Assembly: GCF_000786205.1 (NCBI RefSeq)
Contig: NZ_JROH01000001.1
Span: 62,001-126,000 of the forward strand
Direction of reading: 5' to 3'
From: Sphingomonas sp. 37zxx
Lineage (GTDB): Bacteria > Pseudomonadota > Alphaproteobacteria > Sphingomonadales > Sphingomonadaceae
Length of the DNA stretch: 64,000 bases
Shown here: in pieces, positions 34,238 to 48,422 of the stretch
Numbering within the stretch: position 1 is the stretch's first letter
How the letters are laid out: the number at the start of each line of letters is the position of its first letter
Notes under the pieces: model-generated
What the model saw: only the letters and a program-made list of their open reading frames with translations
The model's database searches: none
Told to the model about the DNA's origin: nothing
Position numbers and translations under genes: made by a program

Positions 34238-34915
34238 TTGATCCCCCGCGAATTGATCGGCACCGCGCAGGTGCCCGACGGCGAAGAACTCAAGCTGTTT
34301 CGGCGCGGCGACGATTTCATGATCGTCCTGCAACGCAACGAGCTGATGAACAGTCGAATGAGCGGGTCTGAGGAAGCGCTGGCGACGATGACCTGCGAGC
34401 GGCTGGCGCAGCGCAAGGCGCTGCGTATCCTGATCGGCGGCTATGGCATGGGGTTCACGCTGCGAGCGGCGCTTGCGGTGCTGCCGGGCGATGCCGAACT
34501 GGTGGTCGCCGAACTGGTGCCCGAGATCGTCGCATGGGCGAAGGGACCGATGGCGGCGCTGACCGCCGGATGCCTGGACGACGCGCGTGTTTCGGTGGTG
34601 TTCGAGGATGTCGCGGCCTCGATCGACAAGGCCAAGGGCGAATATGACGCGATCCTGCTCGATGTCGACAACGGCCCTGACGGGCTGACCCGGCTGGGCA
34701 ATGACCGGCTCTATTCGTCGAGGGGGGTGGCGGCGGTGCGGCGGGCGCTGAAGCCCGGCGGGGTGCTGGCGGTGTGGTCAGCCGCGCCCGATGCCCCGTT
34801 CGCGCGGCGGCTGCGTGAGGGTGACCTGACGGTCGACGAAGTCGTCGTGCGCGCGCGCAGCAACGGCAAGGGCGCGCGCCACGTCATCTGGTTCGCGCGG
34901 CGGCCTGAGGCATGA
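34238..34915 (+). CDS. Spermidine synthase-like methyltransferase-fold protein
   Basis: 225 residues, with a Rossmann fold. Motif I is LIGGYGMGFTLRAAL, followed by LVVAELVPEIVAWAKG and the aminopropyltransferase-like YDAILLDVDNGPDGLT. The protein is shorter than true SpeE (about 280 residues), lacks the first beta-strand domain and lacks the active-site GGGDG motif (it has GGYGM). So a spermidine synthase activity is not assured; it may use SAM or decarboxylated SAM on an unknown substrate. The TTG start is at 34238. Confidence 0.7.
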   Translation: MIPRELIGTAQVPDGEELKLFRRGDDFMIVLQRNELMNSRMSGSEEALATMTCERLAQRKALRILIGGYGMGFTLRAALAVLPGDAELVVAELVPEIVAWAKGPMAALTAGCLDDARVSVVFEDVAASIDKAKGEYDAILLDVDNGPDGLTRLGNDRLYSSRGVAAVRRALKPGGVLAVWSAAPDAPFARRLREGDLTVDEVVVRARSNGKGARHVIWFARRPEA

Positions 34916-35037
34916 CGGGGGACCACCCCGCGCCGGGGAGCCGAATCCCGATCTGGGTCGTAGCGCCGACAAGGTAAGGCATGGCGGCGGCTTTCCGCGC
35001 GTGGCAGGTCGGAGCATCCGATTTCACGAAAGAGCCG

Positions 35038-35970
35038 ATGATGCGCATTTTCGCATGCCTAGCCGCCACCAGCCTGCTCGCCGCGCCTGCTTTTCCCCAG
35101 GGCGAGGGGCCGTTCACCGTCGTCGAACAGGGCCGGAGCTTCGGCAATCTATATGATGCGGTGCAGGCGATCGGCGACGGCACGGGGACGATCCGGATCG
35201 CGCCGGGGCGCTATCGCGACTGCGCGGTGCAAGAGGCGGGGCGGATCAGCTTCGTCGCGACGACGCCGGGCAGCGTGGTGTTCGATTCGGCGATCTGCGA
35301 GGACAAGGCGACGTTCGTGCTGCGCGGGCGGGGCAGCAAGGTGGACGGGATCGTCTTCACCCGCACCTTCGTAAACGACGGCAATGGCGCTGGCATCCGG
35401 ATCGAGAAGGGTGACCTCGAGGTCGTCAATTCGATGTTCGTCGATGGCCAGTGCGGCATCCTGTCGGCGAGCGATCCGCAATCGACGATCAGCGTCGACA
35501 AATCGACCTTCGCGCGGCTGGGCAAGCATCCCGACGGATCGGGCGCGCACGCGCTGTATATCGGCGACTATGGCGCGCTGAAGGTGACGCGATCGCGCTT
35601 CGAGCAGGGCACCGGCGGTCATTATGTCAAGAACCGCGCCCCGCGGGTCGAGATCGTCGACAACAGCTTCGACGACAGCAAGGGACAGGCGACCAATTAT
35701 ATGATCGACCTGTCGAACGGCGCGGTGGGGCGGATCGCCGACAACAGCTTCGTCCAGGGGAACGGCAAGGACAATTGGACGACGATGATCACCGTCGCGC
35801 CCGAGGGGGCCGAGAACGTATCGGCGGGTCTGGTGGTGGAGAATAACCGCGCATCGACGGTGCCGGGATTCAGGAACGATACCGTGCTGGTGCGGAACTG
35901 GTCGAGTGATAAGCTGGTGTTGCGCGGTAATATGCTGAGCGGTCGGATGACCGAATATGCGCGGCAATAA
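35038..35970 (+). CDS. Exported right-handed beta-helix protein
   Basis: 310 residues. A signal peptide (MMRIFACLAATSLLAAPAFPQ) is followed by repeats of the parallel beta-helix type: GTIRIAPGRYRDC, VDGIVFTRTFV, IRIEKGDLEVVNS, VTRSRFEQGTGGHYVKN, VEIVDNSFDDSKGQ and IADNSFVQG. The family includes polysaccharide lyases and mannuronan epimerases, but no catalytic motif is clear. Likely periplasmic or secreted. A downstream lipoprotein hydrolase is 12 bases away on the same strand, so the two may form an operon. Confidence 0.75.
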   Translation: MMRIFACLAATSLLAAPAFPQGEGPFTVVEQGRSFGNLYDAVQAIGDGTGTIRIAPGRYRDCAVQEAGRISFVATTPGSVVFDSAICEDKATFVLRGRGSKVDGIVFTRTFVNDGNGAGIRIEKGDLEVVNSMFVDGQCGILSASDPQSTISVDKSTFARLGKHPDGSGAHALYIGDYGALKVTRSRFEQGTGGHYVKNRAPRVEIVDNSFDDSKGQATNYMIDLSNGAVGRIADNSFVQGNGKDNWTTMITVAPEGAENVSAGLVVENNRASTVPGFRNDTVLVRNWSSDKLVLRGNMLSGRMTEYARQ

Positions 35971-35982
35971 GGGGGCAATCGA

Positions 35983-36831
35983 GTGAGGGGTCGCACGCCA
36001 ACGCTGTTTGCCCTGTCGTTCGCGCTGGGCGGCTGTACCGTGGCGATCAACCAGGACAGTTTCTTCCCGCAAACCATGCCAGCCCCCGCTGCCGCGCTCA
36101 CCGCGCCGCCGGGCTATACGATGGAAGAAGCGTTGATCGTCCTGCCATCGGTGGGGGCGGTGCATGTCGTCCGGCTGGACAACCCGGCGAGCGAGGCGAC
36201 GCTGATCTATAGCGGCGGCAATGGCAGTTTCGTGGCCGGGCAGAGCCAGATGGCGGCGGCGCTGGCCGACGCGGCCAAGACCGACATCATCCTGTATGAC
36301 TATCCCGGCCGTGGCGGCACCACCGTGCCGCCGACGATCGACGCTTCGCTGGCGAACGGTCCGGCGTTGCTCGAGGCGCTGCGCGCACGCGGCTGGATCG
36401 GGCGTGCGGGGCTGTTCGCCTATGGCCTGTCCTTTGGCGGATCGCAGGCGGCGGCGATGGTCCGCAATGGCGGCTTTGACGGGCTGATCATCGAAGGGAG
36501 CGCAGCCGACATTCCGCGCATCGGTCGCGGTTTCGTGCCTGCACTTGTCCGGCCCTTTGTGCTGCTGCGCGTCGATCCCGTCCTCGCCCGGTTTGAATAT
36601 GCCGAGTATGCGATCGCAAGTGGCGCGCCGATCCTGCTGGTCTCGTCCGCCGATGACAGGATCGTCGCCGCCCCGATCATGCGCGATTTTGCCACAGACC
36701 TGCGCGCAAAAAAGGTCGATGTGACCTTTGTCAGCGTACCCGGCGGGCATGGCAGAGCGCTGGGCGATCCTGCGGCGCGGGCGGCGGTGACTCGCTTTCT
36801 GGCCACGCATGCGCGACCGGCTGGCGGCTAG
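35983..36831 (+). CDS. Lipoprotein alpha/beta hydrolase
   Basis: 282 residues starting at GTG 35983. The signal peptide ends in FALGGC, a lipobox with Cys18, so it is probably a membrane lipoprotein. The serine-hydrolase fold shows AYGLSFGGSQA (nucleophile Ser in GxSxG), SSADDRIVAAP (acid) and PGGHGRALG (His). The hydrolysed ester or amide is unknown. Its TAG stop is part of an inverted repeat. Follows the beta-helix gene by 12 bases. Confidence 0.78.
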   Translation: MRGRTPTLFALSFALGGCTVAINQDSFFPQTMPAPAAALTAPPGYTMEEALIVLPSVGAVHVVRLDNPASEATLIYSGGNGSFVAGQSQMAAALADAAKTDIILYDYPGRGGTTVPPTIDASLANGPALLEALRARGWIGRAGLFAYGLSFGGSQAAAMVRNGGFDGLIIEGSAADIPRIGRGFVPALVRPFVLLRVDPVLARFEYAEYAIASGAPILLVSSADDRIVAAPIMRDFATDLRAKKVDVTFVSVPGGHGRALGDPAARAAVTRFLATHARPAGG

Positions 36832-36903
36832 TGGTCCGATTCTGACATTTGCTACCCCCTTCGGCTCAGTCAGGAGCAAATGTCAGAATCTCCAGGACCA
36901 CTA
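36829..36903. repeat. Bulged palindrome copy 1
   Basis: Left arm 36829-36853 (begins TAGTGGTCC, ends TGACATTTGCT) pairs with the right arm 36875-36903, which has an extra TCCA bulge. Loop of 21 bases. The first three bases are the TAG stop of the lipoprotein hydrolase. The core GACATTTGC recurs as GACATTCGC in the neighbouring copy. Confidence 0.8.
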
Positions 36904-36917
36904 GCAATTATGTGATT

Positions 36918-36996
36918 CTAGTGGATTTTATGATTTTGACATTCGCAGCGAGAGCGTGCCGCAGGCGGGATGCGAATGTCAAAATCAATCCACTAG
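36918..36996. repeat. Bulged palindrome copy 2
   Basis: Left arm 36918-36947 (CTAGTGG...GACATTCGCA) pairs with 36971-36996 (TGCGAATGTC...CCACTAG) except for a four-base bulge, loop of 23 bases. The right arm contains the stop codon (36993-36995) of the converging asparagine-synthetase-like gene. It is related to copy 1 and may act as bidirectional terminator. Confidence 0.8.
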
Positions 36997-38744
36997 GCAG
37001 CGTCGGTCGCCACCCCGAGTGCTGCCGCCAGATATTCCAGCGCCGCGATCCTGCGCCATAGCGCGGTGTCGGTCACCCGGTCGATGTTGAAGAAGGCGCG
37101 CATCGCGGGGAAGGCGAGGTCGATCACCCGTGCCATGTAATCGGGGGTCAGCAGCCCGCCATGTTCGTCGCCCATCGGCCGCAGCCGGCGTTGCAGCGCA
37201 TAGCTGTGCTGGCGCACCCAGGTGGGGCGGATCCGCGAGGACCATTCGCTGAAGCGGTGGCGGCGCCCGGGCGGCTCGGTGAAGCGGTGGCCATAGGCCG
37301 AGGGTTGGGCGGCCAGCGCGGGGTCGATCGCGGCGAGCAACTGCGCCTCGAACCGGCCAGCTTGTTTGAGCGCCATCGGCAGCGCCATCGCCTCGGCCAC
37401 CAGCCGGTGATCGAGGAACGGCATCAGGTATGCGCCGTAACGCGATTCGAGGCTGATCTCGCGCCCGAACAGCGACCGGCAGCGCACGTGCGGATAGGCT
37501 TGCTCAATCCATTGGCGCGACAGCAGCGCGGTGGGGCTGCCAACGCCCAGCGCGTCAGCGATCTTGCGCTCGATCGCGCCGATGAAGGCGCGCGGATCGA
37601 ACAACGCGGTCGCGTCGCGGGCGTCGAAGCGGGCGAAGAAGGTGCGGGCGACGGTGCGGGCCGAGGCGGGGCGATCGGCGAGGAAGAAGAAATCGCGCCA
37701 GATCTCGCCGCAGCCGCCCGATGCCGCCAGCGCGCCGCCGGCATGGCGCTTGTCGCGCGCCCAGGCCGCGCCGCCATTGTCGAAGATATTGCCGAAGGTC
37801 GGCAGCGCGTCGAACTGGTCAAAGTTGCGCGCCACCTGCTCGGCAAAGCCATCGGGGGTGATCGATAGCGCGCCGTCCTTGTCGACCCATTCGACCGCGA
37901 ACCCCATCGCGTCGCCGATCGCTTGGGCAAAAACGACATCATCCTCGTCGCGGTCGCCATAGACATAGACATGCGGGGCGTGGCCCGCCTCGCGCAGCGC
38001 CGCCAGCAGCAGCCGCGAATCGAGCCCGCCCGACAGCGGGCAAAAGATGCGGTCGCCAAACGACCCCGCATGCGCCGCGACCACTTGCGCCAGCCGCTGG
38101 CGGTGCCGCCCGATCCGGTCGGGCAGCGCCATATCGCTGACCGTATCGGGCAGGCGTTTTTCGAGCGGATGGGTGATCGTGCCATCGCGGGTCAGTTCGA
38201 TCATGGCGCGCGGGCCGAGCGTCTTTAGCCCGGCGAACACGCTATCTTCGCCGATCGGCACGACGTTGAACGCGAATTCATACACGCCCTGGCGGTCGAA
38301 CCGAAGCACCGGCATCGAGCGGGCGGCGGCAAGCAGCGAGGTCGAAAAGAAGCTGCGATCGCTGTCGTGATGCACCTGGTGCGCGGCAAACCAGTCGGTG
38401 AAGACAAAGCTGCGCCCGTTTTTGTGGATCAGCGCGGTGAATTGGCCACCGATACGCTGCCAATCGGGCGCGGTATCGAAGCTGGCCAGCAAGGTCGCAA
38501 GCGCGGGTGCGCCGATCGCCGAATCGAAGGTGAGTGTGCCCGCCACCGCCACGAAATCCGCCCCCTCGACATGCAGCGTGGCGGGGCCGCCCAGGACATA
38601 GTCGAAGTGGAGGATATGCCAGCCGGCCACCGCATGTTCGCTGGGCGGGCCAAAGCCGTGGCGGGCATATTGCGCGCGAGCCATGCCCAGCCGCGTATCG
38701 GCCACTGCGCGGTTCGCGTTGCGGGTAAGGTACAGGCCGGCCAT
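36993..38744 (-). CDS. Asparagine synthetase-like protein without the N-terminal cysteine
   Basis: 583 residues. The C-terminal PP-loop domain shows FCPLSGGLDSRLLLA (about residue 235), and a glutaminase-like fold precedes it. The start ATG gives MAGLYL, not MCG, so the Cys nucleophile needed to split glutamine is missing. The chemistry could be ATP-dependent amide formation with free ammonia or another amine, as in the beta-lactam synthetase and lasso-peptide cyclase branches. No lasso precursor or protease lies nearby. The ORF continues 94 codons upstream, but that region is the divergent fpr promoter. It converges on the lipoprotein hydrolase. Confidence 0.72.
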   Translation of the reverse strand: MAGLYLTRNANRAVADTRLGMARAQYARHGFGPPSEHAVAGWHILHFDYVLGGPATLHVEGADFVAVAGTLTFDSAIGAPALATLLASFDTAPDWQRIGGQFTALIHKNGRSFVFTDWFAAHQVHHDSDRSFFSTSLLAAARSMPVLRFDRQGVYEFAFNVVPIGEDSVFAGLKTLGPRAMIELTRDGTITHPLEKRLPDTVSDMALPDRIGRHRQRLAQVVAAHAGSFGDRIFCPLSGGLDSRLLLAALREAGHAPHVYVYGDRDEDDVVFAQAIGDAMGFAVEWVDKDGALSITPDGFAEQVARNFDQFDALPTFGNIFDNGGAAWARDKRHAGGALAASGGCGEIWRDFFFLADRPASARTVARTFFARFDARDATALFDPRAFIGAIERKIADALGVGSPTALLSRQWIEQAYPHVRCRSLFGREISLESRYGAYLMPFLDHRLVAEAMALPMALKQAGRFEAQLLAAIDPALAAQPSAYGHRFTEPPGRRHRFSEWSSRIRPTWVRQHSYALQRRLRPMGDEHGGLLTPDYMARVIDLAFPAMRAFFNIDRVTDTALWRRIAALEYLAAALGVATDAA

Positions 38745-38973
38745 CGCCGCGTGGTGTAGCGGGTAACGCTTAACGATCGATAGACCAAGGCCGTCGGCGG
38801 TGCTGGCTTCAACGGCTGCTTGGAGGCGGTATAGAATAGCTGGCACGACGCGGGCCGCGATCCACGATAGGGCGGCTGCATCATCCCTAATGCGCGTCGG
38901 CGTTGATCGTTTCGCCACAGGTCGGTATCGACCGCCGACAAGCCGCGCCTTTTGCGTTACCGGAGACTGTCCT

Positions 38974-39786
38974 TTGCACGCCCCCCGCACGAAGCTTACC
39001 CAGCCGCCGCACGCCGCCTTTGACACTGTCGAGGTGAAATGGGTGCGCCATTGGAATGAGCATCTGTTCAGCCTGGCGGTCGATCGCCCGCCAAGCTTTC
39101 GCTTCCGTTCGGGCGAGTTCGTGATGCTGGGGTTGCAGGGCGACGATAAGCCGCTGATGCGCGCCTATTCGATTTCGAGCGCGGCCTATCATGACGAGAT
39201 CGAGTTTCTGTCGATCAAGGTCGAGGACGGCCCGCTGACGTCGCGGTTGCAGAACGTCGTCGCGGGCGATGAGCTGTATATGGGGCGCAAGCCCACCGGC
39301 ACGCTGGTGACCGACGCGCTGACGCCGGGCAAGCGCCTGTTCCTGCTGTCGACCGGCACCGGCCTTGCGCCGTTCCTTAGCCTGCTTCGCGATCCCGACA
39401 CCTATGAGCGGTTTGAACAGATCGTGCTGGTGCATTCGGTGCGCCGCGTGAGCGACCTGGCGTTCCATGAGGAATTGTCGGGCAAGCTGGCCGATGATCC
39501 GCTGGTGGGCGAGCAGGCGCAGACCCAGTTGCACTATATCCCAACCGTGACGCGCGAGCCGTTCCATACCAGCAAGCGTATCCAGGGCTTGATCGAGGAC
39601 GGCACGTTGTTTGCCGCGCCGATCGAAGGGCCGGCGGCGTTCGATCGCGAAACCGATCGGGTGATGATGTGCGGCAGCACCGCGATGATCGCCGATTTCG
39701 CCAAGCTGCTCGAAGATGCCGGGTTCGAAGAAGGTTCGAATGCGCGCCCTGCGGACTTTGTGATCGAGCGGGCGTTCGTCGGGTGA
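38974..39786 (+). CDS. fpr: Ferredoxin--NADP reductase
   Basis: 270 residues. The FAD-binding RAYSISSA motif, the NADP-binding GTGLAPFLSLLRD and the FVIERAFVG C-terminus fit bacterial class II FNR. It passes electrons between NADPH and ferredoxin or flavodoxin, supplying Fe-S and heme enzymes and oxidative-stress defence. The TTG at 38974 follows GGAG by eight bases; a longer frame up to 38800 has no RBS. Divergent from the asparagine-synthetase-like gene, with 229 bases between starts. Confidence 0.92.
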   Translation: MHAPRTKLTQPPHAAFDTVEVKWVRHWNEHLFSLAVDRPPSFRFRSGEFVMLGLQGDDKPLMRAYSISSAAYHDEIEFLSIKVEDGPLTSRLQNVVAGDELYMGRKPTGTLVTDALTPGKRLFLLSTGTGLAPFLSLLRDPDTYERFEQIVLVHSVRRVSDLAFHEELSGKLADDPLVGEQAQTQLHYIPTVTREPFHTSKRIQGLIEDGTLFAAPIEGPAAFDRETDRVMMCGSTAMIADFAKLLEDAGFEEGSNARPADFVIERAFVG

Positions 39787-39792
39787 TCTCTG

Positions 39793-39829
39793 CCCCGTTC
39801 GTGCCGGGGCAGGCTCGGCATGAACGGGG
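39793..39829. terminator. Bidirectional terminator-like hairpin
   Basis: CCCCGTTCGTGCCG (39793-39806) pairs with CGGCATGAACGGGG (39816-39829) with one mismatch and a nine-base loop, between the convergent fpr and apbE genes. Confidence 0.6.
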
Positions 39830-39834
39830 AAGCG

Positions 39835-40803
39835 TCAGGCGAGCATCGCCGCCAGTGCGGGGGTGATCCATTCGCGGCCATCGCCGGCGCGAAGCTGCGC
39901 GGCAAGGGTATGGCGCTGCGCCGCCGCCATCGCCGCATCGGGGCCAAGCACGGTCAGCGCGGTCGCCCAGGCATCGGCGGTCATGCAATCGGCAGCGATG
40001 ACAGTGGCCGAAACGATGCCGTTTTCGATCGGCCAGCCGGTGCGCGGATCGATGCTGTGGCCCAGGCGGCGGCCATTGCGGGCGATGAAGCGGCGATAAT
40101 CGCCCGACGTTGCCACCGCCAGATCGTGCAGCGCGATTCGCAGCGACGCAGGGAGGCCCGGCGGCGCTTCGACCTCGACCCACCAGGGCTCGCCATCGGG
40201 GCGAATGCCGGCCCCGACGAACTCCCCGCCGATCTCGACCAGAAAATCATGCACCCCCGCCGCGCGACAAGTCGCGGCCAGCCGATCGACCGCATAGCCC
40301 TTGGCAATGCCCGACAGGTCGAGCGTGACCCCGGCATGGCGGCGGGCGCGATGGCCAAATAGTTCCAATTGATGCGCGCCGCTGCGTGCAAGGGCACCGG
40401 CGACTTCGCGTAGCCGGGGCAGATCGCCGCGCGCGCCCGGTGGGCCGAAACCCCAGAGATCGGCAAGCGCGCCGCAGGCAGGATCAAAGGCCCCGTCACT
40501 GGTGCTGCTCACCGCAAGCGCGGCGGCCAGCACCTTGGCCAGATCGGCGGGCAAATCATGCCATTCGCCGATCGGCGAGCGATTGAACCGTGATAGCGCC
40601 GAATCGGGCCGCCATTGGCTCATCGACATGATGACCGAATCGATCGCTTGCCAAAGCGCGGTCTCAAGCCCTGGCGGCGGCGCGACTACCAGTGCCGACC
40701 AGCTGGTGCCCATCGTGTCGCCGCCGATCCGGGCAATCGGCGCCGCTGCGTCGCGCCTGGCGAACGCTTCGGGCGCGACGATTGCCGGGATCGCGACGTG
40801 CAT
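39835..40803 (-). CDS. apbE: FAD:protein FMN transferase (ApbE)
   Basis: 322 residues. It shows MGTSWSALV, the SGIAKGYAVD loop, the FLVEIGGEFVGAG strand, SGDYRRF, and the HSIDPRTGWP metal/FAD motif of ApbE. The enzyme cuts FAD and joins FMN to a Ser/Thr in target proteins outside the cytoplasm. No obvious signal peptide or lipobox is seen at the chosen start (40803), so export is unproven; a TTG at 40821 would add six residues. It ends the PepSY-DUF2271-DUF4198-ApbE operon, and the DUF2271 protein is the likely target. Confidence 0.93.
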   Translation of the reverse strand: MHVAIPAIVAPEAFARRDAAAPIARIGGDTMGTSWSALVVAPPPGLETALWQAIDSVIMSMSQWRPDSALSRFNRSPIGEWHDLPADLAKVLAAALAVSSTSDGAFDPACGALADLWGFGPPGARGDLPRLREVAGALARSGAHQLELFGHRARRHAGVTLDLSGIAKGYAVDRLAATCRAAGVHDFLVEIGGEFVGAGIRPDGEPWWVEVEAPPGLPASLRIALHDLAVATSGDYRRFIARNGRRLGHSIDPRTGWPIENGIVSATVIAADCMTADAWATALTVLGPDAAMAAAQRHTLAAQLRAGDGREWITPALAAMLA

Positions 40804-40810
40804 CGCCGTG

Positions 40811-41632
40811 TCAGGCGCCAAGCACTTCCAGCGTGGTCGTGTAGCTCATGCGGCGCGCGGCTCCGGGGATGGTCGCGCTCTTGCCAGTTGCACTGGCATT
40901 CAGCCAATACATGCCCGCTTCGCTGAACGACACGCGGACCTTGCCCGCCGCATCGGTCTTGAGCGTCTGTTCATCGACCGCGTCGCGATAGCGTTTGCCG
41001 CCGCGCACCACCAGCACCTCGAGCCCGGCTGCAGGCTTGCCATCCACGATAAAGCCGAACACGGCGTCTTCGCCGGTCACCACATCGCTGGGATGGGTTT
41101 CGGCCACCATTTCGAGTCCCTTGCCGGTCGGACGAAGCACGGTGTCGGTGGGCGCACCCGAGGTGACGAACACCTCGTAGCGGCTCTCCATCTGCGTCAG
41201 CGCCACGTCGGTCGCCCCGGCGGGGATGATGCCGGGCAATTTGTCGGCAGTGGTGCCGCGCGGCAGGCGCTTTTCTTCGCCATTCAGCTTGTAGCTGCCG
41301 CCGATGCCGTCATTTTGCATCGCGACCTTCCAGGTCCCGGGCTGCGTCAGATGCAGGTCGAAGGTGCTGCGGAAGCGCCCGGTGTTGAAATTCTCGACCT
41401 TGGCGGCGCTGCCATCGGGGGCGAATGCGCTCGGCTCGACGCGCATCGGCTGATGATCGGCGTGGAATACATCGGTCGATGCCGCCGCGTCGAAGGTGAC
41501 CCAGCCATCGGCGCTCGAGATGATCGTGGTCGAGGGGGCCATCCACAGCCGGTGCGCCTGCAGGCTGGCAGGCACTGCGGCGATGGCGACGGCGGCGATG
41601 GCGATGGCGGTGGCGGTGGCGGTGCGAAGCAT
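40811..41632 (-). CDS. DUF4198 periplasmic protein
   Basis: 273 residues with a signal peptide (ending ASLQAHRLW). DUF4198 proteins are beta-rich, often with a nickel- or iron-linked context, and have a carboxypeptidase-regulatory-like second half, visible as KPAAGLEVLVVRGGKRYRD and GKVRVSFSEAGMYWLNAS. The mature protein begins with HRLWM, a His near the N-terminus that could bind metal. It lies seven bases upstream of apbE. Role is inferred from the cluster: a periplasmic partner in metal uptake or electron transfer. Confidence 0.85.
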   Translation of the reverse strand: MLRTATATAIAIAAVAIAAVPASLQAHRLWMAPSTTIISSADGWVTFDAAASTDVFHADHQPMRVEPSAFAPDGSAAKVENFNTGRFRSTFDLHLTQPGTWKVAMQNDGIGGSYKLNGEEKRLPRGTTADKLPGIIPAGATDVALTQMESRYEVFVTSGAPTDTVLRPTGKGLEMVAETHPSDVVTGEDAVFGFIVDGKPAAGLEVLVVRGGKRYRDAVDEQTLKTDAAGKVRVSFSEAGMYWLNASATGKSATIPGAARRMSYTTTLEVLGA

Positions 41633-41648
41633 GGCGAAATTCCCCTGA

Positions 41649-42161
41649 TCAGCGCGTGAAGGCGAGCGCGACCGCGCCCAGTTCGGATTTGCCCGATGCG
41701 GTAAAGCTTTGGCCGGGCTTTGGCGGCCAGCTGAAGGGAACGCGGATCACCTCGCGGCCCCCTGCTTCGCGCGCTGCCTCGATCGCCAGCACATATTGGC
41801 CGGGGGCCATCTGGCCGGTCGGCACGCGGACCATATGCTTGCCCGGCGCGCGGGTGGCACCCGTCACGCCATCAGCGGGAAAGCGCATCGTCCGGCCCGA
41901 GGCGCGCCACCAGCTTCGCACATCGCTCAGCCATTTGGTGCCCTCGTTCTTGGCCATGTCGAAATCATACCAGACCTGAAGCGTGCGCGCGGGGGCACCG
42001 GGCTTTTCCAGCCAGATGGCGACATAGGGCCGGTTATATTCGGCGACGTTCAGGCGCGGGATCGTGAGTTCGATTTGCGCGGTCTGGGCGAGGGCGGGCG
42101 TGGCGAGCGCGAGCATCGGCAGGCCGGTGAGCAGCATTTGGTGGCGGACCTGCATGGTCAT
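41649..42161 (-). CDS. DUF2271 periplasmic protein with an ApbE-type flavinylation motif
   Basis: 170 residues. Signal peptide with cleavage near PALAQ. The mature part has the DUF2271 pattern YVAIWLEKPGAPARTLQVWYD, WWRASGR, PGKHMVRVPTG and PGQYVLAIEAAREAGG. Residues 97-103 read D-G-V-T-G-A-T, which matches the D-x-x-[S/T]-G-A-[S/T] consensus used by ApbE in NqrC/RnfG and FMN-binding-domain proteins, with Thr103 (bases 41853-41855) as the likely FMN acceptor. Lies between the PepSY and DUF4198 genes, five bases after the first. Confidence 0.85.
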   Translation of the reverse strand: MTMQVRHQMLLTGLPMLALATPALAQTAQIELTIPRLNVAEYNRPYVAIWLEKPGAPARTLQVWYDFDMAKNEGTKWLSDVRSWWRASGRTMRFPADGVTGATRAPGKHMVRVPTGQMAPGQYVLAIEAAREAGGREVIRVPFSWPPKPGQSFTASGKSELGAVALAFTR

Positions 42162-42166
42162 TGTCC

Positions 42167-42832
42167 TCAATGGATGAAGAAAAGGGTGATGATGGTAGGA
42201 ATGGCGAGGCCCAGCGCGACCAGCGGCCAGGTGCTTGGCCGCTTTTTGGCGTGGATCTGGAGCAGTACGAAGCCGGTGAGGGCGAAGATGACACAAGCGC
42301 CCGAAAAAATGTCGAGAAACCATTTCCAGGCGGTGCCGGTGTTGCGGCCCTTGTGCAGGTCGTTGAGCCAGGAAATCCAGCCGCGATCGGTGACTTCGGC
42401 GGTGATCGCGCCGCTGGCCTTGTCGATCGCGACCCAGCCGTCGCCGCCGGGACGCGGCAGCGCGACATAGACTTCGCCCTCGCTCCATTCGGCATTGCCG
42501 CGCGGCGAAAGCCCGGTCTCGTCCTCGATCCAGCGCGCGACCGGGGTGGGGATCGGGCGCGCGGTCTGATCGCTCGACGATAGCTGCGCCAGCAGTGGCG
42601 CGGGCAGCGCGGCGGCGGCGGTGTTCACCCTCGGCGTCGATTCGATCTCACCCGCATGGTTGAGCGTGATGCCGGTGATGGCGAACAGCAACAGGCCGAC
42701 CAGACTGATCGCCGAGCTGACCCAATGCCACAAATAAGTCTGTTTCAGCCAGAATGCCTTGCGGCCCGATTTGCGGCGGGGCGGTGCGGGGCTGGTGGTG
42801 GCGGCTACGGGGTTGGTGGTAGCTTGATGCAT
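42167..42832 (-). CDS. PepSY-associated transmembrane protein
   Basis: 221 residues. A membrane span (about residues 34-56, YLWHWVSSAISLVGLLLFAITGI) is followed by a periplasmic PepSY-like domain and two more spans at the C-terminus. The conserved LHKGRNTG and the His pairs (W-H-W near span 1, N-H-A after it, D-L-H-K) are typical of heme-ligand positions in ferric-reductase-like PepSY proteins. It would carry electrons across the inner membrane. First gene of the cluster, preceded by a Fur-box-like site. Confidence 0.85.
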   Translation of the reverse strand: MHQATTNPVAATTSPAPPRRKSGRKAFWLKQTYLWHWVSSAISLVGLLLFAITGITLNHAGEIESTPRVNTAAAALPAPLLAQLSSSDQTARPIPTPVARWIEDETGLSPRGNAEWSEGEVYVALPRPGGDGWVAIDKASGAITAEVTDRGWISWLNDLHKGRNTGTAWKWFLDIFSGACVIFALTGFVLLQIHAKKRPSTWPLVALGLAIPTIITLFFIH

Positions 42833-42898
42833 GGCGGCTTAGCTACGCTTCATCGTCATCGGCCAGTTCATGTACCGCTTTTCACTTTCGCGCCGCTA

Positions 42899-42915
42899 AT
42901 GCAAACAATTCGCAT
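42899..42915. promoter_or_regulatory. Fur-box-like site of the PepSY-ApbE cluster
   Basis: ATGCAAA-CAA-TTCGCAT is an imperfect 17-base palindrome with one mismatch, 67-83 bases before the first gene of the PepSY cluster. Its shape is like Fur/Irr-type iron-responsive boxes of Alphaproteobacteria. This is a by-eye match. Confidence 0.45.
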
Positions 42916-42981
42916 CTCCTGCGGCGTGCGTGGGGGTTTGTCAATATCGGGGGCAGGCGGGATGGGTCGAAAGGCACAGAA

Positions 42982-43013
42982 AACCCCGGCGTCTCGGGTG
43001 AGACGCCGGGGTT
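42982..43013 (-). terminator. Rho-independent terminator of the ribonucleotide reductase gene
   Basis: A perfect hairpin with 14-base arms (AACCCCGGCGTCTC and its complement, loop of 4). On the minus strand the right arm is followed by TTTTCTG, a short U-run. It lies 24 bases after the ribonucleotide reductase stop. Confidence 0.88.
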
Positions 43014-43036
43014 GATAGCGACGGGTCAGGCGATGC

Positions 43037-44971
43037 TTACTGGCAGGCGAGGCACTCGTCATAGTCGGTCGATTCGCCCAGATCGAAGGTGGGCTTGTCG
43101 ATCGTGTTGTCGGCCTCGACCCCGCCGCTGCCGGCAAAACCGGCGCGCTGCATCGACTTCGAGCGGAGATAATAAAGCGATTTGATGCCCAATTCCCACG
43201 CGCGGAAGTGGAGCATCAGCAGATCCCACTTCTCGACATCGGCGGGGATGAACAGGTTCAGCGACTGCGCCTGGTCGATATAGGGGGTGCGATCGCCCGC
43301 GAGTTCGAGCAGCCAGCGCTGGTCGATCTCGAAGCTGGTCTTGAACGCATCCTTTTCATCCTGGTTCAGGAAATCGAGATGCTGGACGCTGCCGCCCTTT
43401 TCCAGGATCGAGTTCCAGATCGCGTCGGAGTTCTTCGACTTGGCCGACAGCAGCTTTTCCAGATGCGGGTTACGCACCACGAAGCTGCCCGACAGCGTCT
43501 TGTGGGTATAGATATTGCCCGGGATCGGCTCGATGCAGGCGCTGGTGCCGCCGCAGATGATGCTGATCGACGCGGTGGGCGCGATCGCCATCTTGCAGCT
43601 GAAGCGCTCCATCACGCCCATGTCGGCGGCGTCGGGGCAGGGGCCGCGCTCGATCGCGAGTTGCATCGATGCTTCGTTCACTTGCGCCGAGACGTGGCGG
43701 AAGATTCGCAGGTTCCACGACTTGGCCATCGCGCCCTCGAACGGCAGGCAGCGCGCCTGCAGGAACGAATGGAAGCCCATGACGCCGAGGCCGACCGAAC
43801 GTTCGCGCATCGCCGAATAAGCGGCGCGCTCCATGCCGGGTTCGGCGCGGTCGATATAATCCTGCAGCACATTGTCGAGGAAGCGCATCACGTCCTCGAT
43901 GAAGCGCTTGTCGCCGTTCCACTCGTCCCAGGTTTCGATGTTGAGCGACGAGAGGCAGCAGACTGCGGTGCGGTCGTTGCCGAGGTGATCGCGCCCGGTG
44001 GGCAAAGTGATCTCGCTGCACAGGTTCGAGGTCGAAACCTTCAGACCCAGGTCGCGATGATGCTTGGGCATCGTCGAATTCACGTGATCGCTAAAGACGA
44101 TATAGGGCTCGCCGGTCGCAAGCCGCGTCTCGACCAATTTCTGGAACAGCGAGCGGGCATCGACCGTCGCGCGGACGCTGCCGTCCTTGGGGCTTTTGAG
44201 CTGCCATTCGTCGCCTGCGCGGACGGCTTCCATGAAGGCGTCGGGGATCAGCACGCCGTGGTGCAGGTTGAGCGCCTTGCGGTTGAAATCGCCGCTGGGC
44301 TTGCGGATTTCGAGGAACTCTTCGATCTCAGGGTGCGAGACGTCGAGATAGCAGGCAGCCGAACCACGGCGAAGCGAGCCCTGGCTGATCGCCAGTGTCA
44401 ACGAATCCATCACGCGGACGAACGGAATGATGCCGCTGGTCTTGCCGTTGAGGCCGACCGGCTCGCCGATGCCGCGGACATTGCCCCAATAGGTGCCGAT
44501 GCCGCCGCCGCGCGAGGCGAGCCAGACATTCTCGTTCCAGGTCTGGACGATGCCCTCAAGGCTGTCGGGAACCGAATTGAGATAACAGCTAATCGGCAGG
44601 CCTCGCCCGGTGCCACCGTTCGACAGTATGGGCGTTGCGGGCATGAACCACAGCTTCGAGATATAGTCATACAGCCGCTGCGCATGCGTTGCGTCATCGG
44701 CATAGGCCGAGGCGACGCGGACGAAGAGATCCTGATAGCTCTCACCCGGCAGCAGATACCGATCCTTGAGTGTTTCCTTGCCGAAATCGGTCAGCAGCGC
44801 GTCGCGCGAATGATCGACCTCGACCGCATAAAGCTGGACATCGACGGTGTGCGAGTTGCGCTTCTTGGGCGCGGCAGCCTCGGTTGCGGCTTTGGTGGCG
44901 GCTTCGATGCCGGCCTCGATAATGGTGTCGGTCGCGGTATCGCTCACGTGCTGATCGTCCCTGAAATCCAT
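43037..44971 (-). CDS. nrdA: Ribonucleoside-diphosphate reductase, alpha subunit
   Basis: 644 residues. Reduces ribonucleotides to deoxyribonucleotides with a beta subunit that supplies the radical. Active-site elements: PISCYLNS, SNLCSEITLP (Asn, Cys, Glu), VCCLSSLNIE, and the C-terminal DECLACQ redox pair. An N-terminal ATP-cone, usual in about 750-residue NrdA, is absent, so dATP inhibition by that domain is not expected. An Ala/Glu-rich extension (residues 10-35) leads the core. A GTG at 44947 is an alternative start. No nrdB is adjacent in the window. Confidence 0.93.
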   Translation of the reverse strand: MDFRDDQHVSDTATDTIIEAGIEAATKAATEAAAPKKRNSHTVDVQLYAVEVDHSRDALLTDFGKETLKDRYLLPGESYQDLFVRVASAYADDATHAQRLYDYISKLWFMPATPILSNGGTGRGLPISCYLNSVPDSLEGIVQTWNENVWLASRGGGIGTYWGNVRGIGEPVGLNGKTSGIIPFVRVMDSLTLAISQGSLRRGSAACYLDVSHPEIEEFLEIRKPSGDFNRKALNLHHGVLIPDAFMEAVRAGDEWQLKSPKDGSVRATVDARSLFQKLVETRLATGEPYIVFSDHVNSTMPKHHRDLGLKVSTSNLCSEITLPTGRDHLGNDRTAVCCLSSLNIETWDEWNGDKRFIEDVMRFLDNVLQDYIDRAEPGMERAAYSAMRERSVGLGVMGFHSFLQARCLPFEGAMAKSWNLRIFRHVSAQVNEASMQLAIERGPCPDAADMGVMERFSCKMAIAPTASISIICGGTSACIEPIPGNIYTHKTLSGSFVVRNPHLEKLLSAKSKNSDAIWNSILEKGGSVQHLDFLNQDEKDAFKTSFEIDQRWLLELAGDRTPYIDQAQSLNLFIPADVEKWDLLMLHFRAWELGIKSLYYLRSKSMQRAGFAGSGGVEADNTIDKPTFDLGESTDYDECLACQ

Positions 44972-45405
44972 GACTGGCCCCCGTCTCTCATTCGTGCGGC
45001 ATGCACCCCGAGTCGCGGGTAGATGCCGAAATTACCATCCCGCGAGGTGCGCGAGAACAAAAAGTGATCGTTTTGCACCGGGGAGCGGAAACGAGCCGTG
45101 CCACGATATGGGTCTATCGTGCGTCGGATACCAGCGCTTGGGTCCGCCCCCGTTCGCTACCACCATAGATTGTGCCTAAAAGCGTTTGGGGGCAAGCGGG
45201 TAAATCGCCACCCGGCGGCGCTTCGTCGGAAATGCGGGTGGTTCGGACGCGATCGATCGGGCGCGACGCATGGACCAAGCTGGCCTCGCGCGAAAGCAAT
45301 AGGGTGGCATGGGCAGGCCAAAAAGATTTTGGTGGAGGAATCAGCGCCGGTTGCATGCGAGCGGCTTTTCCCGGACCAATGACCTTTGGGGGCAGGAGAG
45401 CAGCG
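44972..45405. other. Gap of 434 bases between divergent genes
   Basis: Upstream regions of nrdA and the MFS gene face away from each other here. Apart from the palindrome at 45102-45121 and a possible NrdR-like CCATAGATTG at 45163-45172, I see nothing more. No coding region is supported. Confidence 0.6.
45102..45121. promoter_or_regulatory. Perfect palindrome in the nrdA upstream region
   Basis: CACGATA (45102-45108) and TATCGTG (45115-45121) flank TGGGTC, a 7-6-7 inverted repeat that suits a dimeric regulator. It is 131-150 bases before nrdA and about 285 bases before the MFS gene. The regulator is unknown; NrdR boxes are usually different (paired sites of about 16 bases). Confidence 0.4.
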
Positions 45406-46677
45406 ATGGACGAACTGGGACGCACGACGGTGCACCAGGTGACATGGCGGCTGATCCCGCTGCTCGGGCTGCTGTACATGGTCGCCTATATCGACCGGCA
45501 GAACGTGTCCTATGCCAAGCTGCAAATGGTCGGCGACCTGGGCATCAGCGAGGCGGCCTATGGCTTGGGCGCGGGATTGTTCTTCGTCGGCTATTGCCTG
45601 TTCGAAGTGCCGAGCAACCTGATCCTCGAGCGAGTCGGCGCGCGGCGATGGTTTGCGCGGATCATGGCGAGCTGGGGGGTGGTGACGCTGCTGCTGGGCT
45701 TCACCCAGAGCCCGACGATGTTCTACATCCTCCGCTTCCTGCTGGGCGTTGCCGAGGCGGGGTTCTTTCCCGGCGTGCTCTATGCGCTGACCCTGTGGTT
45801 CCCGCAGGCGCATCGCGCGCGTGCGATCGGGTTGTTCATGCTGGCGAGCGCGGTCGCCAATGCGGTGGGGGCGGCGCTGGGCGGGTTGCTGCTCGACCTT
45901 GACGGGCTGGGGGGCTTGCGCGGCTGGCAATGGGTGTTCCTGGCGACCGGCGCGCCCGCTTTGCTGCTGGTGCCGGTGGTGCTGCGCTATCTGCCGAGCG
46001 GCCCGGACGAGGCGCGCTGGCTGACCCCGGCGCAAAAGACCTGGCTTGCCGAAGTGCTCGAGGCCGAGCGAACCGCTGGTGGGCGCGAGGCGCATGGCAA
46101 CCCGCTACGCGCGCTGCTCGATCCCCGCGTGCTGATGCTGAGCGCCGCCTATGTCGGGTTTCCGCTGGCGGCCTATGGCCTCAGCTATTGGCTGCCGACG
46201 ATCGTCCAGGGGTTCGGGGTGTCGAACACCGTCAACGGGTTCCTCAACATCACTCCGTGGGTGCTGGTGGGGCTGGCGCTGTGGGCGGTGCCGCGCCACG
46301 CCGCGCGCTACGCTGATCAGCGCTGGCATATCGTGGTGCCAGCGATCGTTGGCGGCATCTGCCTGATCGGCAGCGTGGTGGTGCCCGGCGCGGTCGCGAA
46401 GTTCGCATTGCTGTGCATCGCCGCGCCCGCGATCTTTTCGGGCCAGCCGGTGTTCTGGACGCTGCCGCCCCGCTTCCTGAGCGGGGCGGGGGCGGCGGCG
46501 GGGTTGGCGATCATCAATTCGGTGGGCAATCTGGGCGGGTTCGTCGCGCAGACGGTGGTGCCGCGAATCCGCGACGAAACCGGGAGCGACCTGGCACCGA
46601 TGCTGTTCCTGGCCGCGTGCCTGTTCGCGGCGGCGGTGGGGGTGCTGGTGGTCGAGCGAAGGTTGCCGCGCGGCTGA
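45406..46677 (+). CDS. MFS transporter, anion:cation symporter type
   Basis: 423 residues, 12 spans. The first span is followed by YIDRQNVSYAKLQM, typical of the ACS/phthalate-permease group (sugar acids, tartrate, phthalate and similar organic anions). The A-like motif between spans 2 and 3 is present as NLILERVGARRWFARIM. The ATG at 45406 follows AGGAG by seven bases; longer upstream frames cross the intergenic region. Next gene on the other strand is the GMC oxidoreductase, but the link to the sugar locus is only by location. Confidence 0.85.
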   Translation: MDELGRTTVHQVTWRLIPLLGLLYMVAYIDRQNVSYAKLQMVGDLGISEAAYGLGAGLFFVGYCLFEVPSNLILERVGARRWFARIMASWGVVTLLLGFTQSPTMFYILRFLLGVAEAGFFPGVLYALTLWFPQAHRARAIGLFMLASAVANAVGAALGGLLLDLDGLGGLRGWQWVFLATGAPALLLVPVVLRYLPSGPDEARWLTPAQKTWLAEVLEAERTAGGREAHGNPLRALLDPRVLMLSAAYVGFPLAAYGLSYWLPTIVQGFGVSNTVNGFLNITPWVLVGLALWAVPRHAARYADQRWHIVVPAIVGGICLIGSVVVPGAVAKFALLCIAAPAIFSGQPVFWTLPPRFLSGAGAAAGLAIINSVGNLGGFVAQTVVPRIRDETGSDLAPMLFLAACLFAAAVGVLVVERRLPRG

Positions 46678-46681
46678 CAAG

Positions 46682-46718
46682 TTGCTTCCCTCTCCCGCGC
46701 CGCAGGAGAGGGAAGCAA
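46682..46718. terminator. Bidirectional terminator-like hairpin
   Basis: TTGCTTCCCTCTCC (46682-46695) and its exact complement (46705-46718) with a nine-base loop. It fills the space between the MFS stop codon and the GMC oxidoreductase stop codon, which lies directly next to it. Confidence 0.7.
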
Positions 46719-48401
46719 TCAGATCGTGCCGGCCTGTTTCAGCTTCACCGCGTGATCGACCGCGCGGGCGGTGAGCGCCATGAAGGTCAGTGAGGGGTTT
46801 ACGCACGAGACCGATGTCATCTGCGCGCCATCGGTGACGAACAGATTCGCCGCGTCATGCGCCTGTCCCCATTTGTTGACCACCGACTGGCGCGGATCGG
46901 CCCCCATGCGCGCGCCGCCCATTTCGTGGATCGCATCACCCGGCACATGTTCGCCGCGCCGGCTGGTGACGTTGGCGAGGCCGGCCTTGCGGAGCATTTC
47001 CTCGCCCTGTTCGCGCGCGTCGGTCATCATCTTGAGTTCATTGTCGCGGAAGGTGACGTCGAACCGCATCAGCGGCATGCCGAAGCGATCGACCTTGTCG
47101 GGGTGCAGGCTGACGCGATTATCTTCATAGGGCAGGCATTCGCCGAACGCGGTCATGCCGAAGCTCCAGGGGGCATAGCCGCGCATCGCCTGTTTCATCG
47201 AAGCGCCAAAGCCGACCGGGGGCATCGGCTCGCGGCGAGCGCCGCCCTGATAGCCATAGCCGCGCTTGAAGCCGACGCCTTCTTCGCCGCCGACATTGCG
47301 GAAGCGCGGAATATAGACGCCGCCGGGACGCCGGCCATATTCGATATAGTCGGTCATGCCCGGAATCTCGCCGCTGATGCCGACTCGGAAGATATGGTCC
47401 ATGACATAGCGACCCAGCGTATTGCTGTTGTCGAACACGCTTTTGGTCGAGCCGGGTGCGCGGGTGTTCATCATGATCTGGGTCGACGACATCGCCGAAG
47501 CGCACAGGAAAACCAGGCCCGCCGGGATGATTTCGGCCTGGTTGGTCGTGGTGTCGATCACCCGAACCCCGGTGACGCGCTTGCGCTTTGCGTCATATTC
47601 CAGGTTGGTGACCAGCATGTTGGCGCGCAAGGTGAGATTGCCGGTGGCGCGGGCCGCCGGCAGCGTCACCGCCTGGGTCGAGAAATAGGCACCGAAAGAA
47701 CAGCCGCGACCGCATTGGTTGCGATATTGGCATTTGGTGCGGCCCTGATCCTCTTTGTCCTCGGTCATGTTCGACAAGCGGGTGTTGATCAGCTTGCGCC
47801 CCGGCGACGTTTCCTCGAGCCGTTGCTTCAGCCATTTCTCGGCGATGTTCATCTGCATCGGCGGCTGGAACACGCTGTCGGGCAATTGCGGCAGGTTTTC
47901 GCGCGATCCCGAAACGCCGATATATTTCTCGACATAATCATACCACGGCGCGACGTCTTCATAGCGGATCGGCCAGTCGATCGCGACATTCTCGCGCTTA
48001 TTGGCTTCGAAGTCTTCGGGTGCCCAGCGGAACGACCAGCGGCCCCAGATCAGCGATTTGCCCCCGACCGCGGCCGGGCGAATCCAGTAAAACTTGTCGC
48101 CTTCGTCATAGGCATAGGGGTTCAGCCGGTCGTTATTATAATATTTCTGGGTGCTCGGCGCGACATAGCCGTGCCTGGCGATGAAATAATCGGTTTTCAG
48201 CAGTTCCGCCGGCATTTGATCGCGTGCCGGGATTTCGAAGGCCGGTTTGCCGTCATAATCATAATCCTGGCCGTGTTCGACCATGACGCCGCGATCAAGC
48301 ATCAGGACGCGCAGTCCCTTTTCGGTCAGTTCCTTGGCCGCCCAACCGCCGCTCACCCCGGAGCCGATGACGATCGCGTCGAACTTGTCGGTCGCTTGCA
48401 T
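46719..48401 (-). CDS. GMC-type sugar oxidoreductase, catalytic subunit with three-cysteine cluster motif
   Basis: 560 residues. FAD-binding IVIGSGVSGGWAAKEL at the N-terminus and the GMC C-terminus with IHEMGGARMG (active His) and CVNPSLTFMALTAR. A segment C224-x5-C230-x3-C234 (CQYRNQCGRGC) is like the 3Fe-4S ligand motif of bacterial FAD glucose dehydrogenase, so electrons may pass through an iron-sulfur cluster. Members oxidise sugars at C1 or, in glucoside 3-dehydrogenases, at C3. It ends the operon that begins near 54380; the small subunit gene is two upstream. Confidence 0.9.
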   Translation of the reverse strand: MQATDKFDAIVIGSGVSGGWAAKELTEKGLRVLMLDRGVMVEHGQDYDYDGKPAFEIPARDQMPAELLKTDYFIARHGYVAPSTQKYYNNDRLNPYAYDEGDKFYWIRPAAVGGKSLIWGRWSFRWAPEDFEANKRENVAIDWPIRYEDVAPWYDYVEKYIGVSGSRENLPQLPDSVFQPPMQMNIAEKWLKQRLEETSPGRKLINTRLSNMTEDKEDQGRTKCQYRNQCGRGCSFGAYFSTQAVTLPAARATGNLTLRANMLVTNLEYDAKRKRVTGVRVIDTTTNQAEIIPAGLVFLCASAMSSTQIMMNTRAPGSTKSVFDNSNTLGRYVMDHIFRVGISGEIPGMTDYIEYGRRPGGVYIPRFRNVGGEEGVGFKRGYGYQGGARREPMPPVGFGASMKQAMRGYAPWSFGMTAFGECLPYEDNRVSLHPDKVDRFGMPLMRFDVTFRDNELKMMTDAREQGEEMLRKAGLANVTSRRGEHVPGDAIHEMGGARMGADPRQSVVNKWGQAHDAANLFVTDGAQMTSVSCVNPSLTFMALTARAVDHAVKLKQAGTI

Positions 48402-48422
48402 GTGAATGTCCTCGAGTGCGGG

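What the first reader, a model, noticed from the sequence alone, without database searches (positions are those of the whole stretch)
39835..42832. Flavinylation cluster in which the DUF2271 protein carries the ApbE target motif
Sequence: four genes in one direction (PepSY membrane protein, exported DUF2271, exported DUF4198, ApbE). The DUF2271 protein has D97-G-V-T-G-A-T103, matching the D-x-x-[S/T]-G-A-[S/T] site that ApbE modifies in NqrC/RnfG-type proteins. Knowledge: from memory, genome surveys of flavinylation report ApbE near PepSY, DUF2271 and DUF4198 genes, linked to iron uptake. Inference: DUF2271 is the FMN-bearing periplasmic carrier, PepSY brings electrons across the membrane, and the system reduces Fe(III). 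No separate FMN-binding-domain protein is in the cluster, so DUF2271 is the only clear target.
Basis: partly seen in the sequence, partly recalled or inferred. Interest (0 to 1): 0.78.

Follow-up and report, generated by a model that had tools for sequence, protein, structure and literature searches.

The report
Iron-reductase operon with inside-facing flavin transferase
A four-gene bacterial operon of a known kind makes a flavin-tagged periplasmic protein thought to reduce iron, but the enzyme that attaches the flavin appears to stay inside the cell, so the tag may be added before the protein is exported.

Summary
In detail: a minus-strand operon PepSY – DUF2271 – DUF4198 – ApbE, with D97-GVTGA-T103 in DUF2271. 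A Fur-like palindrome lies upstream here.

All 131 keep the Ser/Thr acceptor; 36 near-apbE proteins have Pro instead of Ala.

What I found in no paper is a compartment mismatch. DUF2271 is exported, yet 94 of 95 standalone neighbouring ApbEs show no recognisable signal peptide (the window's is one of seven borderline cases), and 49 of 50 related genomes have a single apbE gene. In another class, where apbE is unlinked, the 18 ApbEs I could read are lipoproteins. DUF2271 signals are less hydrophobic than DUF4198's in 13 of 14 families with adjacent apbE, 5 of 8 without. I infer flavinylation in the cytosol before Sec export; unproven. In 68 of 113 relatives' junctions apbE seems to start at CTG inside the DUF4198 stop (CTGA).

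The parts
42900..42914 (.). Fur-like palindrome TGCGAATTGTTTGCA upstream of the operon, beside a TTGACA-like -35 (by eye)
   Evidence: Only perfect match to TGCRAANNNTTYGCA in the 3.69-Mb genome (the pattern was drawn from this site, so one match is guaranteed). Score >=10 of 12 upstream of 123 of 183 clusters vs 51 of 915 control stretches.
42167..42832 (-). PepSY_TM_like_2 membrane protein; predicted heme carrier
   Evidence: PF16357. Across 104 cluster proteins H36 104/104, H160 104/104, H59 95/104, H194 81/104, H221 91 of the 91 that reach it.
41649..42161 (-). DUF2271, predicted FMN carrier
   Evidence: PF10029; AlphaFold model mean pLDDT 77.9.
42087..42161 (-). Sec-type signal peptide of DUF2271 (residues 1-25 by eye)
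   Evidence: Sequence; family comparison; no Tat-like pattern in 123 relatives.
41853..41873 (-). Flavinylation motif D97-GVTGA-T103
   Evidence: acceptor column S/T in 131/131; in a low-confidence loop of the model (mature residues 71-80, mean pLDDT 59).
40811..41632 (-). DUF4198, exported protein whose mature form is predicted to start with His (codon 41554-41552)
   Evidence: PF10670; His at this column, after an AxA-like site, in 108 of 111 aligned rows; fold matches metal-binding Zcp and 9GCB.
39835..40803 (-). ApbE FMN transferase without a recognisable signal peptide (alternative TTG start at 40821)
   Evidence: PF02424; family-conserved D168, K174, H255, D283, T287 present; N-terminus MHVAIPAIVAPEAFARRDAAAP.

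Best explanation
The operon is an iron-regulated PepSY/DUF2271 flavinylation system. Electrons cross the inner membrane through hemes held by conserved PepSY histidines, pass to FMN on Thr103 of exported DUF2271, and reduce Fe(III) in the periplasm; DUF4198, with its N-terminal histidine, probably binds the metal. What differs from the textbook is where FMN is attached: ApbE has no recognisable signal peptide, so it most likely transfers FMN from cytosolic FAD to the DUF2271 precursor before Sec exports it. Shown: gene order, families, motif, absence of a recognisable ApbE signal in the group, presence of Sec-type signals on both partners. Inferred: flavinylation itself, its compartment, the heme ligands, the substrate Fe(III), the role of DUF4198.
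For: Families and motif. Published flavinylation of a DUF2271, lost on Thr-to-Ala. Fur binding at the Caulobacter operon and its fitness role under EDTA. Fur-like box here. TonB-receptor and PiuC-like genes near 43 and 44 of 104 clusters, 0 of 27 other loci. ApbE: 94 of 95 anchored standalone neighbours without a recognisable signal; best 11-residue hydrophobicity median 1.09 vs 2.07 (DUF2271) and 2.35 (DUF4198); some start 9-12 residues before the domain. Contrast: the 18 unlinked ApbEs that I read in another class have lipoprotein-type signals; the state changes only 3 times on a quick ApbE tree. 49 of 50 related genomes have a single apbE gene; in the family 49 of 49 genomes with DUF2271 have ApbE vs 8 of 100 without. 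DUF2271 signal less hydrophobic than DUF4198's in 13 of 14 families with adjacent SP-less apbE (p 0.0006) vs 5 of 8 (p 0.74) without.
Against: No experiment shows flavin on this protein or where it is added. The window's ApbE N-terminus is the second most hydrophobic of the 95 (1.97; seven reach 1.8, among them its nearest relative L097), so taken alone it is the weaker case. No SignalP-type predictor was available, and the threshold of 2.0 also misses 50 of 123 DUF2271 signals. The published DUF2271 experiment speaks of a signal-peptide-truncated cognate ApbE, and one of the 95 here (L167) is a lipoprotein. A reference title in PMC12052999 (Bertsova 2014) says that localisation controls ApbE specificity in Klebsiella, so a cytosolic ApbE need not reach exported targets. 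The signal-peptide contrast compares different lineages, and part of it comes from DUF4198 signals being more hydrophobic in the SP-less group (2.41 vs 2.22; DUF2271 2.03 vs 2.16).
Confidence: 0.6

Rival explanations
1. Textbook topology: ApbE reaches the periplasm by a signal that is not recognised (its short N-terminal segment or a non-classical route) and flavinylates exported DUF2271 there.
For: The review passages describe ApbE acting on secreted targets from the periplasm; the window N-terminus is mildly hydrophobic and has an AFA-like site by eye.
Against: Homologues L153, L154, L160, L161 have only 9-12 residues before the domain if the nearest ATG is the start; no basic n-region by eye; the segment is a conserved R-I-x-I-P stretch in 113 junctions (selected for having it); lipoprotein signals in the same enzyme family are obvious where present.
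Confidence: 0.2
2. The SP-less ApbE serves an unknown cytosolic protein; DUF2271 is modified by something else or not at all.
For: Cytosolic ApbEs with cytosolic targets are known.
Against: ApbE tracks DUF2271 in the family (49/49 vs 8/100) and is mostly its operon neighbour; 49 of 50 genomes have no second apbE gene; no FMN_bind match in this genome.
Confidence: 0.1
3. ApbE is made as a frameshift fusion to DUF4198 and exported with it, which would explain both the missing start codon and the missing signal peptide.
For: 55 of 79 junctions have ApbE in the -1 frame; 69 of 113 have no ATG/GTG/TTG.
Against: The frame differs in 24 of 79, the window among them; the 69 junctions without a usual start are all in the -1 frame, so those in other frames have a start of their own yet no signal peptide; the usual GCG CCC TGA does not look slippery (my reading); an annotated relative starts with GTG at the same GTGA position.
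Confidence: 0.04
4. The system handles another metal (Ni, Co, Cu, Zn), or PepSY is a siderophore permease rather than a reductase.
For: A DUF4198 relative binds Ni; Zcp structures with Zn, Cu and Co match the fold; PepSY permeases were proposed in Alteromonas.
Against: Fur control and chelation phenotype of the Caulobacter operon; the Ni ligand His18 is absent from the window protein.
Confidence: 0.12

Closest known systems
PepSY-like flavinylation system (Meheust et al. 2021, PMC8238504; passages read)
   Same: PepSY, DUF2271, DUF4198, ApbE; [S/T]GA[S/T] motif; proposed iron reduction.
   Different: ApbE without a recognisable signal peptide. The passages I read do not discuss this; clusters were kept if at least one of four target genes had a signal, so such clusters pass.
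Caulobacter crescentus CC3059-CC3063 operon (PMC3751524, PMC12004947; passages read)
   Same: PepSY, DUF2271, DUF4198, ApbE in that order; Fur site over the promoter.
   Different: Caulobacter has a fifth gene annotated as sulfite reductase flavoprotein; none of that kind follows in the window's operon. I did not read the Caulobacter ApbE sequence.
Cytosolic ApbE of Klebsiella pneumoniae (as told in PMC12052999; passages read)
   Same: FMN transferase without signal peptide.
   Different: Its target, a soluble fumarate reductase, stays in the cytosol; DUF2271 has an export signal.
IsDUF4198, PDB 9GCB (PMC12537917; passages read)
   Same: Exported beta-sandwich with His as first mature residue; fold match E 7.2e-9.
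   Different: No sequence match at E<=1; second ligand His18 absent, instead His34 and His154 (mature numbering) are conserved.

Membership tests
PepSY-like flavinylation system | PepSY protein (PF03929 or PF16357) in a flavinylation cluster | tested here: met
   Both Pfam models above cut-off.
PepSY-like flavinylation system | DUF2271 with the ApbE target motif | tested here: met
   D97GVTGAT103, PF10029.
PepSY-like flavinylation system | ApbE gene in the cluster, key residues kept | tested here: met
   PF02424; D168, K174, H255, D283, T287, conserved in 81-83 of 83 cluster ApbEs (that they are catalytic is recalled, except His as general base).
PepSY-like flavinylation system | At least one signal peptide among the target genes | tested here: met
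   DUF2271 has one by eye and hydrophobicity; criterion read.
PepSY-like flavinylation system | ApbE itself exported (textbook assumption, not a stated criterion) | tested here: not met
   No recognisable signal; 94 of 95 standalone neighbours alike, without a dedicated predictor.
PepSY-like flavinylation system | Covalent FMN on DUF2271 | not testable with these tools
   Needs protein.
PepSY-like flavinylation system | NAD-binding domain on PepSY (only in a subset) | tested here: not met
   221 aa, only PF16357/PF03929 at E<=0.01.
Fur regulon | Fur box at the promoter | tested here: inconclusive
   Palindrome found and enriched in relatives; binding not tested and the pattern was not taken from a Fur data set.
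Ni-binding DUF4198 (9GCB type) | N-terminal His plus His18 | tested here: not met
   His1 column in 108 of 111 rows; no His at mature position 18 of the window protein.
Diheme PepSY reductase (FoxB type) | Conserved heme-ligand histidines | tested here: inconclusive
   H36 and H160 invariant in 104, H59, H194, H221 mostly; not aligned with FoxB, heme not tested, PepSY not modelled.

The most novel reading that the evidence does not exclude
A large class of exported flavoproteins (DUF2271) is flavinylated in the cytosol by an ApbE that never leaves it, and the FMN-bearing precursor then threads the Sec channel. A weaker signal peptide on DUF2271 buys time for the reaction, so no FAD export is needed. 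In many sphingomonads the enzyme is made at a low level from a CUG codon coupled to the end of DUF4198.
Probability: 0.5. Interest if true: 0.8.

Novelty: new variant of a known kind. Interest (0 to 1): 0.55.

Why it matters
Flavinylation of exported proteins is taken to happen outside the cytosol, which raises the question of how FAD gets there. A signal-peptide-less ApbE paired with an exported target turns that round and allows a clean test: in which compartment, and can Sec pass a covalent FMN. It would also mean that surveys that filter ApbE by signal peptide, or gene finders that allow only ATG/GTG/TTG, miss or truncate such enzymes, and that the natural target motif may be broader (Pro for Ala) than the usual one.

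Tried and rejected
Motif conserved only beside apbE: rejected (65/105 vs 15/26). Tat export of folded, flavinylated DUF2271: 5 of 123 signals hold an Arg pair and none fits a Tat-like pattern. DUF4198-ApbE frameshift fusion: see rivals. The neighbouring ferredoxin-NADP reductase (38800-39786, +) as electron donor: among 131 loci it lies near the cluster only in the window and in one same-genus relative, on the opposite strand, and in none of 80 named loci. Rfam families in 38000-45000: none at gathering score. Novelty of the DUF4198 N-terminal His: already in print (PMC12537917). CUG start at Caulobacter dnaA as a precedent: the paper says it is not used in vivo. DUF2271 fold search: nothing at E<=0.001, uninformative. 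A first hydrophobicity comparison placed the DUF2271/DUF4198 windows upstream of their signals; one search replaces it (its ApbE values stand). One search read minus-strand loci on the wrong strand; one search replaces it. Search for prior notice of SP-less ApbE beside DUF2271: (listings) and passages of PMC8238504, PMC11334425, PMC12052999, PMC9045290; none found, but only open-licence papers are held and supplements could not be read. Search for CUG starts in this setting: (listing, 15 of 2,188 papers shown), uninformative.
Full report
WHAT IS THERE. Four genes on the minus strand, 42832 to 39835: PepSY_TM_like_2, DUF2271, DUF4198, ApbE. PepSY and DUF2271 are 5 bases apart, DUF2271 and DUF4198 16, and ApbE begins at an ATG 7 bases after the DUF4198 stop codon (or at an overlapping TTG). 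The genome (completeness 100 by the tool) holds one DUF2271, one ApbE and no FMN_bind match. Upstream, 42900-42914, lies TGCGAATTGTTTGCA, the only perfect match to TGCRAANNNTTYGCA in the genome (the pattern was drawn from this site, so one match is guaranteed). Scores of 10 or more of 12 occur upstream of 123 of 183 clusters (both locus sets, the window included) and in 51 of 915 control stretches.

WHAT IS KNOWN. Passages of the 2021 eLife survey (PMC8238504) describe this kind of cluster: PepSY-like clusters with DUF2271 (2833) and DUF4198 (1500), and flavinylation of one DUF2271 by its ApbE in E. coli, lost on Thr-to-Ala. Passages of PMC3751524 show that the Caulobacter operon of these genes is bound by Fur and induced by iron limitation; PMC12004947 links it to fitness under EDTA. 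PMC11334425 describes two bis-histidine hemes in a PepSY relative. PMC12537917 describes the N-terminal His of DUF4198 in a Ni-binding relative.

RELATIVES. I searched PF10029 in 241 class, 149 family and 397 phylum genomes, overlapping sets, and fetched 130 stretches of up to about 14 kb, which with the window cover the 131 distinct places over the family's cut-off. My own profiles found DUF2271 in 131 of 131 loci; 84 had PepSY, DUF4198 and ApbE together, and 104 had PepSY and DUF4198 with or without ApbE. Sampling favours the window's family (51 of 131). A further 80 named loci came from the search for related loci with a DUF4198 profile, nearly all sphingomonads.

THE MOTIF. Strict [S/T]GA[S/T] is in 80 of 131; with ApbE within 7 kb 65 of 105, without 15 of 26. 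So adjacency does not predict the motif. All 131 keep Ser or Thr at the acceptor position; position 1 is Asp in 104. Of the 40 ApbE neighbours without the strict motif, 36 have Pro at the Ala position; none of the 26 without ApbE nearby do (Fisher p 1.2e-4, not corrected for descent). The eight ApbE-DUF2271 fusions all have odd motifs (KPS, RPT, GPT, RET). PMC12052999 tells of about 50% flavinylation after Gly-to-Ala or Ala-to-Val, so a variant is not excluded as a target; Pro is untested as far as I saw.

THE COMPARTMENT MISMATCH. DUF2271 and DUF4198 carry Sec-type signal peptides. The ApbEs beside them do not. Of 106 ApbE hits, 95 standalone ones could be anchored at the TMGT-like motif; 8 were fusions with DUF2271, and three others (a fragment in L129, L098, L176) were left out of the count. 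The best 11-residue Kyte-Doolittle mean before the domain has median 1.09 for ApbE, 2.07 for DUF2271 (n=123) and 2.35 for DUF4198 (n=111); at 2.0 or more: 1 of 95, 73 of 123, 101 of 111; at 1.8 or more: 7 of 95, 102 of 123, 109 of 111 (the ApbE counts are the same with 60 residues). The one is L167, a lipoprotein. The window's own value, 1.97, is the second highest, and its nearest relative L097 is also among the seven. But its segment MHVAIPAIVAPEAFARR corresponds to the R-I-x-I-P segment of its relatives, has no basic start and is broken by prolines; in L153, L154, L160 and L161 only 9-12 residues precede the domain if the nearest ATG is the start. A few others (for example L157, L165) have longer, unlike N-termini. 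No transmembrane anchor stands out in the bodies (best 19-residue mean: median 1.34, 3 of 95 reach 1.8; PepSY 2.51).

CONTROLS. I searched ApbE genome-wide in the 20 and the two. The 18 of the 20 that could be read have lipoprotein-type signals; two (G493, G543) were not read. The two sphingomonads have one unlinked ApbE each, without a signal (L325, L326). On a quick tree of 121 ApbEs the signal-peptide state changes 3 times against a mean of 23 in shuffles (FastTree only). Of 50 related genomes, 47 have one ApbE match, two have what looks like one gene in two pieces, and one (G291) has two genes. In the family, ApbE is present in 49 of 49 genomes with DUF2271 and 8 of 100 without.

A PREDICTION TESTED. 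If flavin is added before export, DUF2271 should be exported slowly. In 79 clusters with SP-less ApbE its signal peptide is less hydrophobic than that of DUF4198 in the same operon (median difference -0.42, p 1e-10); in the 20 loci without adjacent apbE there is no difference (-0.08, p 0.96, similar with windows of 8 and 14). By family: negative in 13 of 14 (p 0.0006) versus 5 of 8 (p 0.74). Against a simple reading: the two groups are different lineages, and part of the contrast comes from DUF4198, whose signals are more hydrophobic in the first group (2.41 vs 2.22), while DUF2271's are lower (2.03 vs 2.16, p 0.03). It supports the idea but does not prove it.

START CODON. Among 113 distinct DUF4198-apbE junctions in both sets that hold the R-I-x-I-P segment, 69 have no ATG, GTG or TTG at or before it; in 68 of these the frame begins with CTG overlapping the DUF4198 stop as CTGA (the other: ATAG). 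Of the 44 with a usual start, 25 have C before TGA. Two annotated relatives on plasmids start with GTG; in the Sphingomonas one it is GTGA at the same place. The window is not of this type. Most are related sphingomonads, so 68 is not 68 independent events.

PARTNERS. PepSY: H36 and H160 in 104 of 104, H59 95, H194 81, H221 in the 91 that reach it, consistent with heme ligands. DUF4198: His at the first mature position in 108 of 111 rows; a confident model (pLDDT 91, pTM 0.86; 75 rows) matches the metal-binding proteins Zcp (E 3e-13) and 9GCB (E 7e-9). His34 and His154 (mature) are conserved in the 75 rows; I had no coordinates to test whether they meet His1. DUF2271: model pLDDT 78, motif in a low-confidence loop. 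TonB receptors lie near 43 and PiuC-like dioxygenases near 44 of 104 clusters, and near none of 27 other loci; in the named set near 43 and 49 of 78, and near both of two loci with only part of the cluster. The window has no such receptor in 34501-49500.

VERDICT. The cluster is a member of a published system. What I found in no paper is the apparent cytosolic place of its flavin transferase: well supported as a sequence fact for the group, borderline for the window protein taken alone, and inferred as a mechanism.

Noticed in passing
L128, L132, L146, many of L219-L298: DUF4198-apbE junction: In 68 of 113 junctions apbE seems to start at CTG inside CTGA, the DUF4198 stop; gene finders limited to ATG/GTG/TTG would truncate the protein.
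   Followed up: partly
L099, L145, L194-L196, L198-L200: ApbE fused to DUF2271 in one protein with signal-like N-termini, and with degenerate target motifs.
   Followed up: no
L100:6890-10635 (+): Operon DUF2271 - PepSY_TM/flavodoxin/FAD/NAD-binding fusion (736 aa) - ApbE, again without an ApbE signal peptide.
   Followed up: partly
L299:1-4879, L300:1-4912: On plasmids of Sphingomonas parapaucimobilis and Methylobacterium currus a TonB siderophore receptor and an Fe2+-dependent dioxygenase lie directly upstream of the four genes, like the Caulobacter CciT/CciO pair named in PMC12004947.
   Followed up: partly
L016-L028: Weak partial DUF2271 matches (mostly profile positions 64-114, E 5e-5 to 1e-3) in 13 genomes, open frames of 226-277 aa; perhaps another Ig-like domain such as FlgD (guess, not tested).
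   Followed up: no
window 38800-39786 (+): Ferredoxin-NADP reductase convergent with apbE; found there only in the window and one same-genus relative.
   Followed up: yes
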